DNA of 64,000 nt from Halospeciosus flavus (lineage in GTDB: Archaea > Halobacteriota > Halobacteria > Halobacteriales > Halobacteriaceae): NCBI RefSeq assembly GCF_029814175.1, contig NZ_CP122312.1, positions 1,860,001 through 1,924,000 on the forward strand, in the 5' to 3' direction. Below the pieces are notes generated by a model. The model was not told the DNA's origin and ran no database searches. It was given only the letters and a program-made list of their open reading frames with translations. This document shows positions 34,633 through 47,074 of the stretch, in pieces. Every line of letters starts with the position of its first letter. Position 1 is the stretch's first letter. The position numbers and the translations under genes are program-made.

Positions 34633-35343
34633 TCACCACCGCCGGACGACCACCGTGAGACGCGTCGTCCCCGCGGGCGCCACGACGCGGACGTCGAACG
34701 CGGCGGCGAGGACGTGCGTCTGTCCGGCCCGGTTCTGGACGACGACGCCGTCGATAGCCTGACACCCACCGAAGCGCCGGCCCTCGCCGCGCGGGCAGTG
34801 TGCTCGACGCCACGCGACCGCGGTCGACTCGTTGCGCTCGACCCGGATGGCCGTTCCGTCGTCCAGCGAGGCGGTCCGAAGTCCGTCGAGGTGTGGGTCG
34901 AGTGCCGTCCGGAACGCGTCGACGCGTTCGAAGAGCGCGAACGGCGTCAGCGCACCGAGGCAGCGCTGCTCGCAGAGCACGGCGTAGCCGAGACGGCGCC
35001 GGCCGGCCCGGGAGCGGTCGGTCAGGCGAGCGACGACGCGACGGTGTTTCTCTGAGAGACCCGTACGCGCCCGTTCGACGGTCCCTTCACGGGTGACCGG
35101 CGGCGAGGCGTGTGCGTCCGCGAAGTAGTCGGCGACGCGCCCGGCGGCGGCCCGGTCGGCGACACTCACCGGTGGTTCGCGCACGTCGTAACGGACGCCG
35201 TCGCCGTCGGTCCGGAGCGTCACGACGACGTCGGGGAGGACCTCGTACTGCTGGCGGACGTCGGGTGCGTACCACGCGTCGGCGTCGCCGGGTGGGACCG
35301 GCGGGGGAATCGCCGGCGGCTCGGCGACGGGGGAGTCGGACAT
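34633..35343 (-). CDS. Hypothetical protein, 236 aa
   Basis: From ATG 35343. Pro-rich N-terminus (PPAIPPPVPPGDAD), then a domain with 'YEVLPDVVVTLRTDGDGVRYDVREPPVSVADR' strands and a helical middle containing three cysteines, and an Arg-rich end. TTTAAC sits about 24-30 nt upstream, consistent with a promoter. I do not recognise the family. Its start is divergent from the large repeat protein. Confidence 0.65.
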   Translation of the reverse strand: MSDSPVAEPPAIPPPVPPGDADAWYAPDVRQQYEVLPDVVVTLRTDGDGVRYDVREPPVSVADRAAAGRVADYFADAHASPPVTREGTVERARTGLSEKHRRVVARLTDRSRAGRRRLGYAVLCEQRCLGALTPFALFERVDAFRTALDPHLDGLRTASLDDGTAIRVERNESTAVAWRRAHCPRGEGRRFGGCQAIDGVVVQNRAGQTHVLAAAFDVRVVAPAGTTRLTVVVRRW

Positions 35344-35445
35344 TACACCGACTGCTTCGCAATCGTAGTTAAACACTCGGCGCGAGTCAGCCGTCGATTC
35401 AGACGGCCGTTGGACTTTCGGGGGGTTGTTTCGAACACACACACG

Positions 35446-37986
35446 ATGACCGAACACCACATTCCGAAGGGTGTGAGCCTCGACACCCTCCAGGAGATAC
35501 TCGCCGGGTGGGCCGAAGTGGGGGCCGGCGAGGAGCCACGATACACCTCCGACGTCGAGGAGGTGACGAGTGTCTCCGACGTGGTCGGTCGCCAGACCCG
35601 CTTCCTGGAGGAACTCGGCATCCTCGAACCGCACCGGCAGAAACACCGACTGACGGACGCCGGCGAGGACCTCGCGAACGCGCTGGTCGAGGGCGACGAC
35701 GAGCGCGCGGCGGAGCGAGCACGCGACCTCCTCGTGGACTGGGACCTCACCGAGGACGTCCGCGGCGTCGTCGAGGGGAACCCGACCGCGGAGGAGGACC
35801 TCGTCCCCATCGTCGCGGACCTCGCCGAGCAGGACCTCGACGCCGCCCGCGTCGAACCGGGAATCACGACGCTCCTCGACCTCTACGAGTGGGCCGGTCT
35901 CCTCGAACGCGACGCGGAGGGACGCTATCGCCTCCCCGAGACCGAGACTGAAGAAGAGGCCGAAGCCGAGGCCGAAGAAGAGGAGACCGAGACGACCGGC
36001 GAGGCCGTTGACGAGACGACCGCGACGGCCGCCGAGGCTGTTTCCGGGACCACCGAAGCGGCCGAACGGGCGCAGGAGACAGCCGAGAAGGCCGCCGTCG
36101 CCGCCGAGTCGACGGCGGAACGGGGAACCGAGACGGGTGGAGAGACGACCGGAGAGACCAGCGAGCCAGCGCGAACGATGACCGAGGAACCGACCGAAGC
36201 GGCCGAGACGATAGAACAGACCATCGAAGAGGTGGCCGAGCAGACCGTCGCCGAGACGGCCAGCGAGGCGGCCCGCGAGGCCGCCGAAGAGGTGGCCAAA
36301 GAGACGGCGGCGACCGTGGCGGACGAGGTGGCCGAACAGACCGCGTCGGAAACCGCCGAGTCGGTCGCGACGGTGGCCGCCGAGCGCGTCGCCGAAGGGA
36401 CTGCGTCGGAGACCGCAGAACGGGTCGCCGAAGACGTCTCCGACGAGGTGCAGTCGGCCGCGGAGACCGCCCAGGACGCCGCGGAGACGGCGCGCTCGGT
36501 GGCCGAGTCGGTCGACACCGAGACGATCGAAGAGACGGCGACGGAGGCAGCGACCGAGGCGGCACGAGAGACGGCGGAGTCGGTCGCCCGCGAAACCGCC
36601 GAGCAGGCGGCCGAACGGACTGCCCGCGACGTCGCACGGGAGACCGCAGAACAGGTCGCCCAGGAGACGGCACGTGACGTCGCCGAATCTGCGGCGGAGG
36701 ACGTCGCTCGCGAGGCGGCGGCCGACGCGGCCGAGACGGCCGCTCGCGAGACCGCCGAGCAGGTCGCCCAGGAGACGGCACAGGAGACCGCCGAGGAGAC
36801 GGCGGAGTCGGTCGCCCGAGCGGCGGTCGGTGACGTCGAGCAGGCGGCCGAACGCGCCGCGGAAGCCGCCGAGGCCATCGAAGACGTCGTCTCAGCGGTC
36901 GAGCAGAGCGTCGCCGTGCCGTCGACCGAGACGGCCGAGGGCGCCGCCGAAGTGGCCGAACCCTCGTCGTCGACTACCGAAGCGTCTGCCGACGAGGAGG
37001 AGGCGGCGCCGACGTCGGCCGTAGAGCAGACCGAGGAGGTGCTCTCCGAGGCCGCCAACGGGACAAGCGCCGACGTGGAGCGAGCGGCCGAGGAGGCCAC
37101 CCGCGAACTGCTGGCGGACGAGGGTGCAGTCGAGATTAGCTTCGGTGACGACTCCGGCGTCGAGATCCGGATCGACGAAGAGTCCGGCGTGGAGGTCCAC
37201 CTCGAAGACGGCGTGGACCTCGAAGACGTCGACCTGCCGGAGGGTATCCAGGTCGAGACGAGCGACGAACCGCTCGAAACCGACGGCGGCGAGGACCTCG
37301 TCCCCGACGGGGGAGACGCCGAAAGTACTGGAAGCGACGGAAACGGCGGTGGAGTCGTCGAACTCGCCGAAGACGACGAGACCATCCACATCGACGTCGA
37401 CGCCGGTCCCGGCGTCACCATCTCCGTCGGCGAAGAAGAGGAAGAAGCCGAGGAAGCCGAAGGTGAAACAGGAGCGGCCGGAGAGACCGAGGAAGAGGGC
37501 GAGGAAACCGCCGAGGAGGGCGAAGTCAAAGGTGAGGAAGAAACTGAAGGCGGAGAAGCCACCGAGGAGACCGAAACCGAGGCCGAAGAATCGGCCGAGG
37601 AGGAGAGCGAGTCGGCGGCCGAAGAGACCGAGTCTGCGGAGTCCGAGGCCGAAGAGACCGCGGAGGCGGCCGAGGAGAGTGCCGGCGAAGTGACAGCGGC
37701 ACCCGGCGAACTCGAAGGTCTCGAAGATGTCCAGGAACTCGTGGCCGAAGTCGCGGAAGCCGCCGCCGAAGCACGAGAGGCCGCCGAGACGGCGAAAGAG
37801 GCCGCAAAGGAGGCCCAAGCCGCGGCACAGCAGGCCGCGGAGGGTGGCGCCGCCGCCGCGAGTTCCGAACCGGCGACGCAACCGCACGCACTCTCACTCG
37901 ACGTCGACCTCGACGCCGACTCCGAGGATCTGGAGGCGCTCGTTCGCGGCATCCGGCGCGGGCTGACGCCCGAGGACGACGACTGA
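35446..37986 (+). CDS. Winged-helix protein with long LEA-like Ala/Glu repeats
   Basis: 846 residues. About 1-165: two consecutive winged-helix-like units (SLDTLQEILAGWAEVG.. RQTRFLEELGILE.. and the second ending DLYEWAGLLERDAEGRYRLPE). About 186-495: an almost unbroken Ala/Glu/Thr/Arg helix-forming tract of degenerate 11-residue repeats such as ARETAEQVAQE and TARDVAESAAE, like group-3 LEA proteins. About 557-660: a beta-rich acidic block. About 662-750: Glu-dominated tract. End: another Ala-rich helix and an acidic tail. No signal peptide, so it is cytoplasmic. A DNA-binding head with a long amphipathic tail could be a nucleoid or stress protein; that is inference. Confidence 0.75.
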   Translation: MTEHHIPKGVSLDTLQEILAGWAEVGAGEEPRYTSDVEEVTSVSDVVGRQTRFLEELGILEPHRQKHRLTDAGEDLANALVEGDDERAAERARDLLVDWDLTEDVRGVVEGNPTAEEDLVPIVADLAEQDLDAARVEPGITTLLDLYEWAGLLERDAEGRYRLPETETEEEAEAEAEEEETETTGEAVDETTATAAEAVSGTTEAAERAQETAEKAAVAAESTAERGTETGGETTGETSEPARTMTEEPTEAAETIEQTIEEVAEQTVAETASEAAREAAEEVAKETAATVADEVAEQTASETAESVATVAAERVAEGTASETAERVAEDVSDEVQSAAETAQDAAETARSVAESVDTETIEETATEAATEAARETAESVARETAEQAAERTARDVARETAEQVAQETARDVAESAAEDVAREAAADAAETAARETAEQVAQETAQETAEETAESVARAAVGDVEQAAERAAEAAEAIEDVVSAVEQSVAVPSTETAEGAAEVAEPSSSTTEASADEEEAAPTSAVEQTEEVLSEAANGTSADVERAAEEATRELLADEGAVEISFGDDSGVEIRIDEESGVEVHLEDGVDLEDVDLPEGIQVETSDEPLETDGGEDLVPDGGDAESTGSDGNGGGVVELAEDDETIHIDVDAGPGVTISVGEEEEEAEEAEGETGAAGETEEEGEETAEEGEVKGEEETEGGEATEETETEAEESAEEESESAAEETESAESEAEETAEAAEESAGEVTAAPGELEGLEDVQELVAEVAEAAAEAREAAETAKEAAKEAQAAAQQAAEGGAAAASSEPATQPHALSLDVDLDADSEDLEALVRGIRRGLTPEDDD

Positions 37987-42764: not shown

Positions 42765-44747
42765 ATGGCACGGCAAACACAACTCAGGAGCGCCATCCTC
42801 GCGGCGCTACTGGTACTGTCAGTTTTCGCAGGAAGTATCGCATTCGCCGGTTCGGCCGCAGCGGTGCAGGCCGACGGCAGCAGCATCGACACCGACCCGG
42901 CGGACCCCAACGAGACGGCCACGCACAAGGTCGTCCTCGAACTCACGGGTAACGAGGGTGGGAACGCTCTCTCGGACATCTACGTGAACTACTCGGTGGA
43001 CCCCGCGTACAACGGGTCCGTCGCGAACGTCACGAAAGAGGACGTTCTCCGCGTCGGCGTCGACGTCGACGAGTCCGGCGACATCGACCAGCAGGCGAAG
43101 GACCTGAAGCGCGTCCTCCACCCACACAACGGGACGCTCGTCTTCGACTTCGGCGGCGACACGAGCCTCAAAGACAACGAGTCGGTCATCGTCGTCTTCA
43201 ACAACACGACGAACCCGACGACCGGCGAGTACAACGTCTCGGTCGACGTCAACACCGGGAGCAAGTTCGACCCGGTGAACACGACGCTCAAAGTCGGCCC
43301 GAACGTCACCGACTACGAGACGAACGAGACCGAGGTGACGGGCTACGAACCGGCGTCGGACCACGACGAGATCATCGACTCCGCGCCGCCGAACCCGGGA
43401 CAGACGGCGACTCACCACGTCGCCATCGCCACCTCCTCGAACGAGGTGGGTAACTCCCTCTCCGACATCCAGGTGAACTACCACGCCGACGGGAGTTTCG
43501 ACGGCTCCGTCCAGGACGTCGGCATCGAGGACGTGAAGAAAGTCGGCTTCGACATCGACGGTGACGGCGACATCGACGTCTCCACGATGGACGACCTGAA
43601 GTCCGTCACGACGACGAACGTCGGCGAGACCGTCACCTTCGACTTCGGCGGGAACTACGGTATCAAGGACGACTACGGCGTCATCGTCGTCTACTCGGAC
43701 GTCCAGAACCCGACGTCGCCGGGCAACTACACCGTCCAAGCCGACATCAACGTCCAGTCGACGAAGAACCCCCGTACGGGGTCGCTCGTCCTCGCGAACT
43801 ACACGTTCCGTAACCTCACACTCCACAACTACACCGCGCTCAACGCGACGTACAACAACACGACAGTCCTGAACAGCACGTGGAACAACACGACCATCGT
43901 CAACTCCACGTTCACGAACGTCACGCAGAACCGGACGGTCTGGACCAACGTGACGGTCCAGAACGCGACGCTGAACAACACCACGTTCTACAACACGACC
44001 TGGCGGAACGTCTCCGTCGTCAACGAGACGTGGTGTAACCAGACCTGGCAGAACGTCACCGTCACGAACACGACGTGGGCCAACGGCACCGCGTGCAACG
44101 TGACGTGGACCGACTCCACACTCCGGAACGCGACGTGGAACAACACCACCATCTACAACACGTCGCTGGTGAACGTCACGTGGCAGAACACCTCCGTCGT
44201 GAACTCGACGTTGGTGAACACCACGTGGAACAACACGACGGTCTGGAACACGACGCTCAACAACACGACCGTCGTGAACTCGACGTTGGTGAACACCACG
44301 TGGAACAACACCACGACGACGAACGTAACCGTGACCAACGCGACGCTGACGAACGTCACGTTCCAGAACGTCACGCTGTCGAACGTGACGATATCGAACG
44401 TCACCTGGACCAACGTGACCATCACGAACGAGACCTGGGAGAACACGTCCGTGACGAACGCCACGTGGTCGAACGCCACGCTGGCGAACGGGACGTGGGA
44501 GAACACCTCGTTCTACGAGTTCGACCTGACCGACACGACGTTCGAGAACGTGACGTTCGACGACTCGGACGTCCGTGACGTCACCTTCGAGGACACGTCG
44601 CTCGACGAAATCGCGCACGACCGCTCGCGTCTCGAGAACTTCACCGTCGACGACGAGGACCTCGACGACGGCGTCGTCGACGACGAGAAGATCAAGAAGG
44701 AGAAGAAGTACATCAAGAAGACGAACAACGGCGACGGCAACAGCTAA
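42765..44747 (+). CDS. Secreted protein with sequon-bearing pentapeptide-repeat beta-helix
   Basis: 660 residues. A Sec signal peptide (residues 1-34, MARQTQLRSAILAALLVLSV...AAAVQA). Two related domains follow at about 42-165 and 185-335, both with 'DPADPN/PPNPGQ.TATH', 'LSDI.VNY', a D.DGD-type loop and 'FDFGG...KD..GVIVV'. Residues 345-614 are 54 consecutive pentapeptide units in strict register, of the form N-x-T-hydrophobic-x; 46 of the first 48 begin with an N-x-T/S sequon. Units 49-54 shift to canonical DxTF./DVTFE pentapeptides. The tail is Asp/Lys-rich; no PGF-CTERM anchor is seen. A right-handed quadrilateral beta-helix with an Asn ladder is predicted. Confidence 0.85.
   Translation: MARQTQLRSAILAALLVLSVFAGSIAFAGSAAAVQADGSSIDTDPADPNETATHKVVLELTGNEGGNALSDIYVNYSVDPAYNGSVANVTKEDVLRVGVDVDESGDIDQQAKDLKRVLHPHNGTLVFDFGGDTSLKDNESVIVVFNNTTNPTTGEYNVSVDVNTGSKFDPVNTTLKVGPNVTDYETNETEVTGYEPASDHDEIIDSAPPNPGQTATHHVAIATSSNEVGNSLSDIQVNYHADGSFDGSVQDVGIEDVKKVGFDIDGDGDIDVSTMDDLKSVTTTNVGETVTFDFGGNYGIKDDYGVIVVYSDVQNPTSPGNYTVQADINVQSTKNPRTGSLVLANYTFRNLTLHNYTALNATYNNTTVLNSTWNNTTIVNSTFTNVTQNRTVWTNVTVQNATLNNTTFYNTTWRNVSVVNETWCNQTWQNVTVTNTTWANGTACNVTWTDSTLRNATWNNTTIYNTSLVNVTWQNTSVVNSTLVNTTWNNTTVWNTTLNNTTVVNSTLVNTTWNNTTTTNVTVTNATLTNVTFQNVTLSNVTISNVTWTNVTITNETWENTSVTNATWSNATLANGTWENTSFYEFDLTDTTFENVTFDDSDVRDVTFEDTSLDEIAHDRSRLENFTVDDEDLDDGVVDDEKIKKEKKYIKKTNNGDGNS
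43797..44606 (+). repeat. 54 pentapeptide-coding units (15-bp period)
   Basis: Each 15-bp unit encodes N-x-T/S followed by a hydrophobic and a variable residue. At DNA level the units differ by many synonymous changes and only a few blocks (for example around 44205-44315) recur nearly exactly, so the array is old or under selection for protein rather than freshly duplicated DNA. Confidence 0.9.
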
Positions 44748-46435: not shown

Positions 46436-47074
46436 TTACTCGTCCGAGGAGGACTCCGTGTCCTCCTGCTCGTCTTTCACTTCGTCCTCGTCGTCTTCGC
46501 TCGCGGCGTCACTGTCTTCGTTCTCGTCACCTTCCTGCTCGGTCTCGTCTTCGGACTCGTCGGTCTCTTCGTCCTGCTTCTCGTCCTCTTCAGCCTCGTC
46601 TTCGTCCTTCTCTTCACGCTCCTCGTCGGGGCGCTCGTACTCGACCTTCTCCTCGACGAGCGTCAGCGTGCCGTCGTGGCGTTCGTACGTCAGTTCGCCC
46701 TCGACGTGGTCACCCTCGAACGTGACTTCGAGTTCGTCCACGTCCTCGTGGGTGACGTTGCGGACGTCGACCGAGACCGTCCCGTTCGCGCCGGTGGTTC
46801 CGACCTTCTCACCGTTCACGGAGACGGTCAGGTTCGCGACGCCGCTCCCGTCCGCGTCGGTGACGGTGAGCGTCGCCGTCCCGTTCTCGTAGGTCACGAC
46901 CGCGTCCACGTTCGCGGGCGCGGCGGTCGCGTTCGCGGCCGTCGACCCGTTCGTGGTCGACTCGTTCGTCGGCGAGGCGGAGGCAGCGGGGCCGATGCCG
47001 CCCGAGGCGGCGACGGCACCGCCCATCGACAGCAGTACGACCAGTCCGGCGGCGAGTAGTTTCGTGGTGTCCAT
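46436..47074 (-). CDS. Secreted protein with Asp/Glu-rich C-terminal tail
   Basis: 212 residues: Sec signal (MDTTKLLAAGLVVLLSMGGAVAA), an Asn/Thr-rich linker with several sequons (NESTTNGSTAANAT), a small Ig-like or carboxypeptidase-regulatory-like beta domain (about 60-140: TATLTVTDADGSGVANLTVSVNGEKVGTTGANGTVSVDVRNV), and a tail of about 70 residues that is almost all Glu/Asp. The tail could bind divalent cations or stay soluble at high salt. No anchor seen. Function unknown. Confidence 0.72.
   Translation of the reverse strand: MDTTKLLAAGLVVLLSMGGAVAASGGIGPAASASPTNESTTNGSTAANATAAPANVDAVVTYENGTATLTVTDADGSGVANLTVSVNGEKVGTTGANGTVSVDVRNVTHEDVDELEVTFEGDHVEGELTYERHDGTLTLVEEKVEYERPDEEREEKDEDEAEEDEKQDEETDESEDETEQEGDENEDSDAASEDDEDEVKDEQEDTESSSDE

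What the first reader, a model, noticed from the sequence alone, without database searches (positions are those of the whole stretch)
43797..44606. Pentapeptide-repeat beta-helix carrying an N-glycosylation sequon in nearly every rung face
Seen: 54 five-residue units in unbroken register; 46 of the first 48 start with N-x-T/S, and position 4 is hydrophobic (W, L, V, F, I). Established: pentapeptide repeats fold as a right-handed quadrilateral beta-helix with four units per coil, and haloarchaeal AglB glycosylates N-x-S/T on exported proteins; this protein has a Sec signal. Inference: the Asn residues would stack in four surface columns, giving a needle that could be glycosylated at dozens of evenly spaced points or could form an uncharged Asn/Thr ladder. 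This is the opposite of the acidic surface most haloarchaeal proteins use, and like ice-binding or adhesin helices. I know of no described protein with this design.
Basis: partly seen in the sequence, partly recalled or inferred. Interest (0 to 1): 0.88.

Follow-up and report, generated by a model that had tools for sequence, protein, structure and literature searches.

The report
Sequon-studded beta-helix on haloarchaeal surface protein
A salt-loving archaeon encodes an exported rod-shaped protein whose beta-helix carries a sugar-attachment signal in almost every five-residue unit; dense sugar coats on beta-helices are known in bacteria, but this arrangement on a pentapeptide-repeat rod appears to be new and has not been shown to be glycosylated.

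Summary
The gene (42765-44747, +, 660 aa) has a haloarchaeal surface-glycoprotein signal, two related surface domains and a 54-unit array N-x-[S/T]-hydrophobic-x. 46 of the first 48 units begin with a sequon; another sequon survives a one-residue register slip. Shuffling never gave more than 12 such units (20,000 trials). AlphaFold2 predicts a confident beta-helix; Foldseek matches include pentapeptide-repeat proteins. In 25 other haloarchaeal pentapeptide proteins only 2.5% of units carry a sequon in this register. Asn and Thr are conserved although third bases of the Thr codons vary as much as in the free columns. The first N-terminal domain is also sequon-rich (12 in 159 aa). A full-length AglB is encoded. 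Best reading: a secreted rod selected as a dense AglB substrate. Glycosylation, occupancy and function are not shown; an unmodified Asn/Thr ladder is the main rival. 'No described protein with this design' is too strong: the SV2 luminal domain is an N-glycosylated pentapeptide helix, and the adhesin EtpA is a beta-helix with about 61 N-glycans. The array is an orphan: no comparable one was found in 394 haloarchaeal genomes, phages, plasmids or a truncated scan of 84,980 species.

The parts
42765..44747 (+). whole gene, 660 aa, exported surface protein
   Evidence: ORF from ATG, GC3 0.93; domains
42780..42866 (+). haloarchaeal surface-glycoprotein signal peptide (aa 6-34)
   Evidence: NCBIfam TIGR04207, E 4.9e-10
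42876..43352 (+). surface domain copy 1 (aa 38-196), 12 sequons
   Evidence: 45% identical to copy 2; homologues across haloarchaea; sequon density 7.5 per 100 aa against a mean of 1.9 in 33 homologous domains
43353..43796 (+). surface domain copy 2 (aa 197-344), 1 sequon
   Evidence: AlphaFold2 model low confidence (pLDDT 49), mostly beta
43797..44516 (+). 48 pentads N-x-[ST]-hydrophobic-x (aa 345-584), 46 with an in-register sequon
   Evidence: Pfam PF13599 and PF23894; AlphaFold2
44517..44606 (+). six terminal acidic pentads (aa 585-614), Asn mostly replaced by Asp, Thr/Ser mostly kept
44607..44744 (+). short predicted helix (aa 613-622) and low-confidence acidic/lysine-rich tail; no PGF-CTERM found

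Best explanation
An exported haloarchaeal surface protein: Sec signal, two surface domains, then a pentapeptide-repeat right-handed beta-helix of about 13.5 coils (some 65 A, from the usual rise of about 4.8 A per coil). Each unit puts a hydrophobic residue (often Trp) and a small residue into the core, Thr/Ser outward on the strand and Asn at the turn, so that sequons run along the four corners. The array is maintained as a dense substrate for AglB, giving a stiff, sugar-coated rod on or outside the S-layer. The glycans would make up for the missing acidic residues and act as spacer, shield or adhesive. Shown: gene, signal, repeat, predicted fold, AglB gene, selective conservation of both sequon positions. 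Inferred: glycosylation, occupancy (probably partial), location and function.
For: Fold: Pfam, AlphaFold2 and Foldseek. Sequon rule beyond the fold's needs: 25 haloarchaeal pentapeptide proteins (1,569 units) have Asn at i+2 in 10%, S/T at i-1 in 30%, both as a sequon in 2.5%; 30 other archaeal pentapeptide proteins (629 units) have the sequon in 3%; here 47 of 54. Constraint: among the first 48 units the third base of the column-3 codon differs in 53% of pairs, as in the free columns (51-55%), but its first and second bases in only 23% and 4%, against 74% and 73% in column 5; i+1, the other outward strand position, is free (3.47 bits against 0.85 for i-1). All five departures from Thr in units 1-48, apart from the slip, are Ser. 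The sequon is kept across the register slip. Domain 1, not a pentapeptide helix, has 12 sequons in 159 aa, near the top of 33 homologues. AglB: TIGR04154, 910 bits. The N-terminal domain occurs in PGF-CTERM, pilin-like and S-layer-type proteins. Precedent for neighbouring N-glycans on successive beta-helix strands: EtpA.
Against: No glycoproteomic data. Corner Asn of successive coils would be about 4.8 A apart; EtpA carries mainly single hexoses, whereas AglB adds oligosaccharides, so full occupancy is unlikely. In units without Asn, S/T is still mostly kept (4 of 7), which suggests a structural part in the Thr preference. Domain 2 has one sequon only. No close relative exists to test conservation between species. 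No membrane or PGF-CTERM anchor was found.
Confidence: 0.58

Rival explanations
1. An unmodified Asn/Thr ladder: Asn is selected as turn residue and Thr as beta-strand surface residue, giving a neutral, stiff rod that binds a surface, mineral or polysaccharide; sequons are a by-product.
For: Asn at the turn and Thr on the strand fit the predicted fold; where Asn is replaced, mostly by Asp in the last units, S/T is mostly kept; the pentapeptide fold tolerates Asn at i+2 (10-24% in controls).
Against: Control pentapeptide helices show no such restriction of i-1 and i+2; every non-Thr in the main array is Ser apart from the slip, and the sequon survives the slip; domain 1, not a pentapeptide helix, is also sequon-rich; AglB is present.
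Confidence: 0.3
2. Recent neutral expansion of one N-x-T seed by DNA duplication, with no selection for sequons.
For: Internal DNA repeats of 15, 30 and 75 bp at 67-85% matches.
Against: The free columns differ in 80-90% of unit pairs and third bases in 51-55%, while Asn and Thr are kept: the units have diverged far beyond a recent copy.
Confidence: 0.06
3. Not a functional surface protein: never made, or cytosolic.
For: Orphan array; no C-terminal anchor found.
Against: Strong signal hit, GC3 0.93, intact 660-codon frame, conserved N-terminal domains of surface proteins.
Confidence: 0.06

Closest known systems
Pentapeptide-repeat proteins (PF13599/PF00805; HetL, Qnr, MfpA, AlbG)
   Same: five-residue period, small residue at i-2, hydrophobic at i, predicted beta-helix; Foldseek E 5e-9 to 6e-7
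   Different: exported; Asn at i+2 in 87% and S/T at i-1 in 94% of units against 10% and 30% in haloarchaeal controls; Trp in the core 28% against 1%
Synaptic vesicle glycoprotein 2 luminal domain (LD_SV2, PF23894)
   Same: same register with Asn corners, extracytoplasmic, N-glycosylated pentapeptide helix; Pfam E 7.6e-15; best PDB sequence hit E 1.3e-4; PMC8145042
   Different: about five coils against 13.5 and few sequons; the model also matches ordinary archaeal pentapeptide proteins without sequons, so the hit shows register, not kinship
EtpA and HMW1 adhesins
   Same: long beta-helix with dozens of N-x-S/T sites; EtpA has 96 sequons and about 61 N-glycans, with glycans in contact on successive strands
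   Different: three-sided helix, two-partner secretion, HMW1C-like hexose transferase instead of AglB; sequons not once per unit
Secreted haloarchaeal proteins with short N-x-T pentads (genus g17; G069)
   Same: exported, same N-x-[ST]-hydrophobic-x register (NLTVVNASFENVTLTNVTIRNATV; NRTVENVTIENLTVENLTVENVTVQNLTVENLSV)
   Different: 5-8 units only, no long helix; not shown to be homologous

Membership tests
[quoted passage not shown]
   54 units; PF13599 71 bits over cut-off 38; PF13576 over cut-off; PF00805 below its cut-off
Pentapeptide-repeat superfamily | right-handed quadrilateral beta-helix, four units per coil | tested here: inconclusive
   AlphaFold2: three-residue strand every five residues, high pLDDT; Foldseek hits to pentapeptide structures, best such target TM 0.68 (HetL); handedness and coil number not read from coordinates; core size alternates between neighbouring units (volume correlation -0.44, p 0.002; -0.36, p 0.011 after correcting the slip)
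SV2 luminal domain | specific match to LD_SV2 and SV2 transporter context | tested here: not met
   LD_SV2 over cut-off but it also matches many archaeal pentapeptide proteins; no transporter part (full-length SV2 model 18 bits, cut-off 637)
EtpA/HMW1-type two-partner adhesins | N-terminal TPS domain | tested here: not met
   no such Pfam match in aa 1-344
Haloarchaeal surface glycoproteins | TIGR04207 signal | tested here: met
   E 4.9e-10, 38.9 bits over cut-off 24.6
Haloarchaeal surface glycoproteins | C-terminal PGF-CTERM anchor | tested here: not met
   no match; tail has no hydrophobic segment
AglB N-glycoproteins | glycan on N-x-S/T sites | not testable with these tools
   AglB gene present; no mass spectrometry

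The most novel reading that the evidence does not exclude
A protein fold turned into a regular glycan scaffold: a pentapeptide beta-helix that displays AglB glycans in ordered columns along its corners, replacing the acidic protein surface usual in haloarchaea by an acidic sugar coat.
Probability: 0.4. Interest if true: 0.82.

Novelty: new variant of a known kind. Interest (0 to 1): 0.62.

Why it matters
If glycosylated, it would be an exceptionally dense natural N-glycan array: 55 sequons in 270 residues, against 19 confirmed sites in the most glycosylated protein reported for Haloferax volcanii (PMC8241124). Its rungs would be evenly spaced, which makes questions about how close two N-glycans can sit, and whether sugars can replace acidic residues for salt tolerance, directly testable. 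If it is not glycosylated, a long neutral Asn/Thr ladder that stays soluble at high salt would itself be unusual.

Tried and rejected
DNA-pattern scans of viral contigs gave mostly microsatellites and canonical NL[ST]GA pentapeptide arrays with Asn in another register. The search for related loci in genome contigs: none. Plasmids and phages: no tblastn match, though the low-complexity filter may hide such a repeat. Kinship with SV2 rejected because its model matches ordinary archaeal pentapeptide proteins. A fold for the N-terminal domain could not be had (pLDDT 49). Coil periodicity from residue identity at lag 4: no signal.

Full report
Observation. The ORF 42765-44747 (+) encodes 660 aa. 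From aa 345 it reads as 54 units of five residues; 46 of the first 48 and 47 of all 54 begin with N-x-[S/T]. Shuffling the same residues gave a mean of 5.9 and at most 12 such units in 20,000 trials. At aa 385-394 two units have four and six residues; the sequon is kept there at N389, so the slip moves the sequon rather than destroying it. The six last units are acidic and mostly have Asp in place of Asn.

What it is. Pfam finds Pentapeptide_4 (E 8e-20) and LD_SV2 (E 7.6e-15), both over their cut-offs. AlphaFold2 without an alignment predicts a three-residue strand every five residues, with block means of pLDDT of 88-97 over aa 369-578 and lower values at both ends of the array. Foldseek returns pentapeptide proteins (6FLS, HetL, AlbG, Qnr, MfpA) among other beta-helices. 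Mapping the strands on the sequence, Thr, the hydrophobic residue and the next residue form the strand; Asn and the residue after it form the turn. 28% of the core positions are Trp, against 1% in 25 other haloarchaeal pentapeptide proteins. Core residues of neighbouring units alternate in size (volume correlation -0.44, p 0.002; -0.36, p 0.011 when the slip is corrected for), as expected if they pack against each other.

Export. The N-terminus matches TIGR04207. Two copies of a 45% identical domain follow. The signal-plus-domain region has matches in 158 of 394 haloarchaeal genomes searched, though part of those matches cover only the signal and the first residues; domain relatives sit in proteins with PGF-CTERM anchors, in pilin-like proteins and in an S-layer-type protein. 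No PGF-CTERM or membrane segment was found in this protein, so its attachment is unknown.

Is the sequon selected? In 1,569 units of 25 haloarchaeal pentapeptide proteins, Asn stands at i+2 in 10%, S/T at i-1 in 30%, and both as a sequon in 2.5%. In 629 units of 30 other archaeal proteins the sequon frequency is 3%. The third base of the Thr codon differs in 53% of pairs among the first 48 units, as in the free columns, while its first two bases are conserved. The Asn codon is always AAC, so it says nothing about synonymous change. The other outward position, i+1, is free. Domain 1, which is not a pentapeptide helix, has 12 sequons in 159 aa; the mean of 33 homologous domains is 1.9 per 100 aa. 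A full-length AglB (910 bits) and a weaker second match are in the genome. Together this favours selection for sequons over two separate structural preferences. Against it, S/T is mostly kept even in units without Asn (4 of 7), and domain 2 has one sequon only.

How it would work (inference). The rod would have about 13.5 coils, some 65 A. Corner Asn of successive coils would be about 4.8 A apart, so full occupancy with oligosaccharides is unlikely. EtpA, a bacterial beta-helix adhesin, shows that single N-hexoses can sit on successive strands and touch each other (PMC11463764). The Haloferax volcanii AglB glycan contains uronic acids (PMC8241124), so a sugar coat could supply the negative charge that the array lacks (5 D/E in 240 aa). 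The function could be spacer, shield or adhesion; nothing here decides between them.

How unusual. No other of 394 haloarchaeal genomes has a comparable array: a five-unit pattern occurs 22 times in this genome, all ten listed matches lying in this gene, and 1-6 times in 22 others, mostly Gly-rich linkers or simple repeats. Short N-x-T-hydrophobic pentads in the same register occur in secreted proteins of genus g17 and as a linker in G069. Literature searches for pentapeptide repeats with haloarchaea or archaeal N-glycosylation gave no paper that, by title and abstract, describes such a protein.

Verdict. A real, exported, orphan pentapeptide-repeat beta-helix with an extreme sequon density. 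It is a new variant of a known fold; the glycan-rod reading is the best supported but untested.

Noticed in passing
L388, L389, L391, L392, L401, L410 (genus g17) and L034: Secreted proteins of roughly 240-290 aa with short N-x-[ST]-hydrophobic-x pentads, most with 10-19 sequons; a possible small family.
   Followed up: partly
L429 (G069:C1:2399281-2399381): Surface protein of at least 880 aa with linkers such as NRTVENVTIENLTVENLTVENVTVQNLTVENLSV and ENVTEDNVTEDNVT.
   Followed up: partly
L398 (G074:C1:178000-181000, - strand): A protein resembling cytochrome oxidase subunit II with an inserted sequon-bearing pentad-like stretch; identity judged by eye only.
   Followed up: no
window 46436-47074 (-): Another apparently exported, very acidic protein (30% D/E) with 7 sequons, close to the gene.
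   Followed up: no
window 36633-36856: 108-bp tandem repeat inside a long acidic ORF (35110-37986).
   Followed up: no
G000:C1:2131284-2133281: A second, weaker match to the AglB model (138 bits, below the cut-off) besides the full-length one.
   Followed up: no
G355:C207: Open frame of 5,441 aa with many pentapeptide-repeat matches.
   Followed up: no
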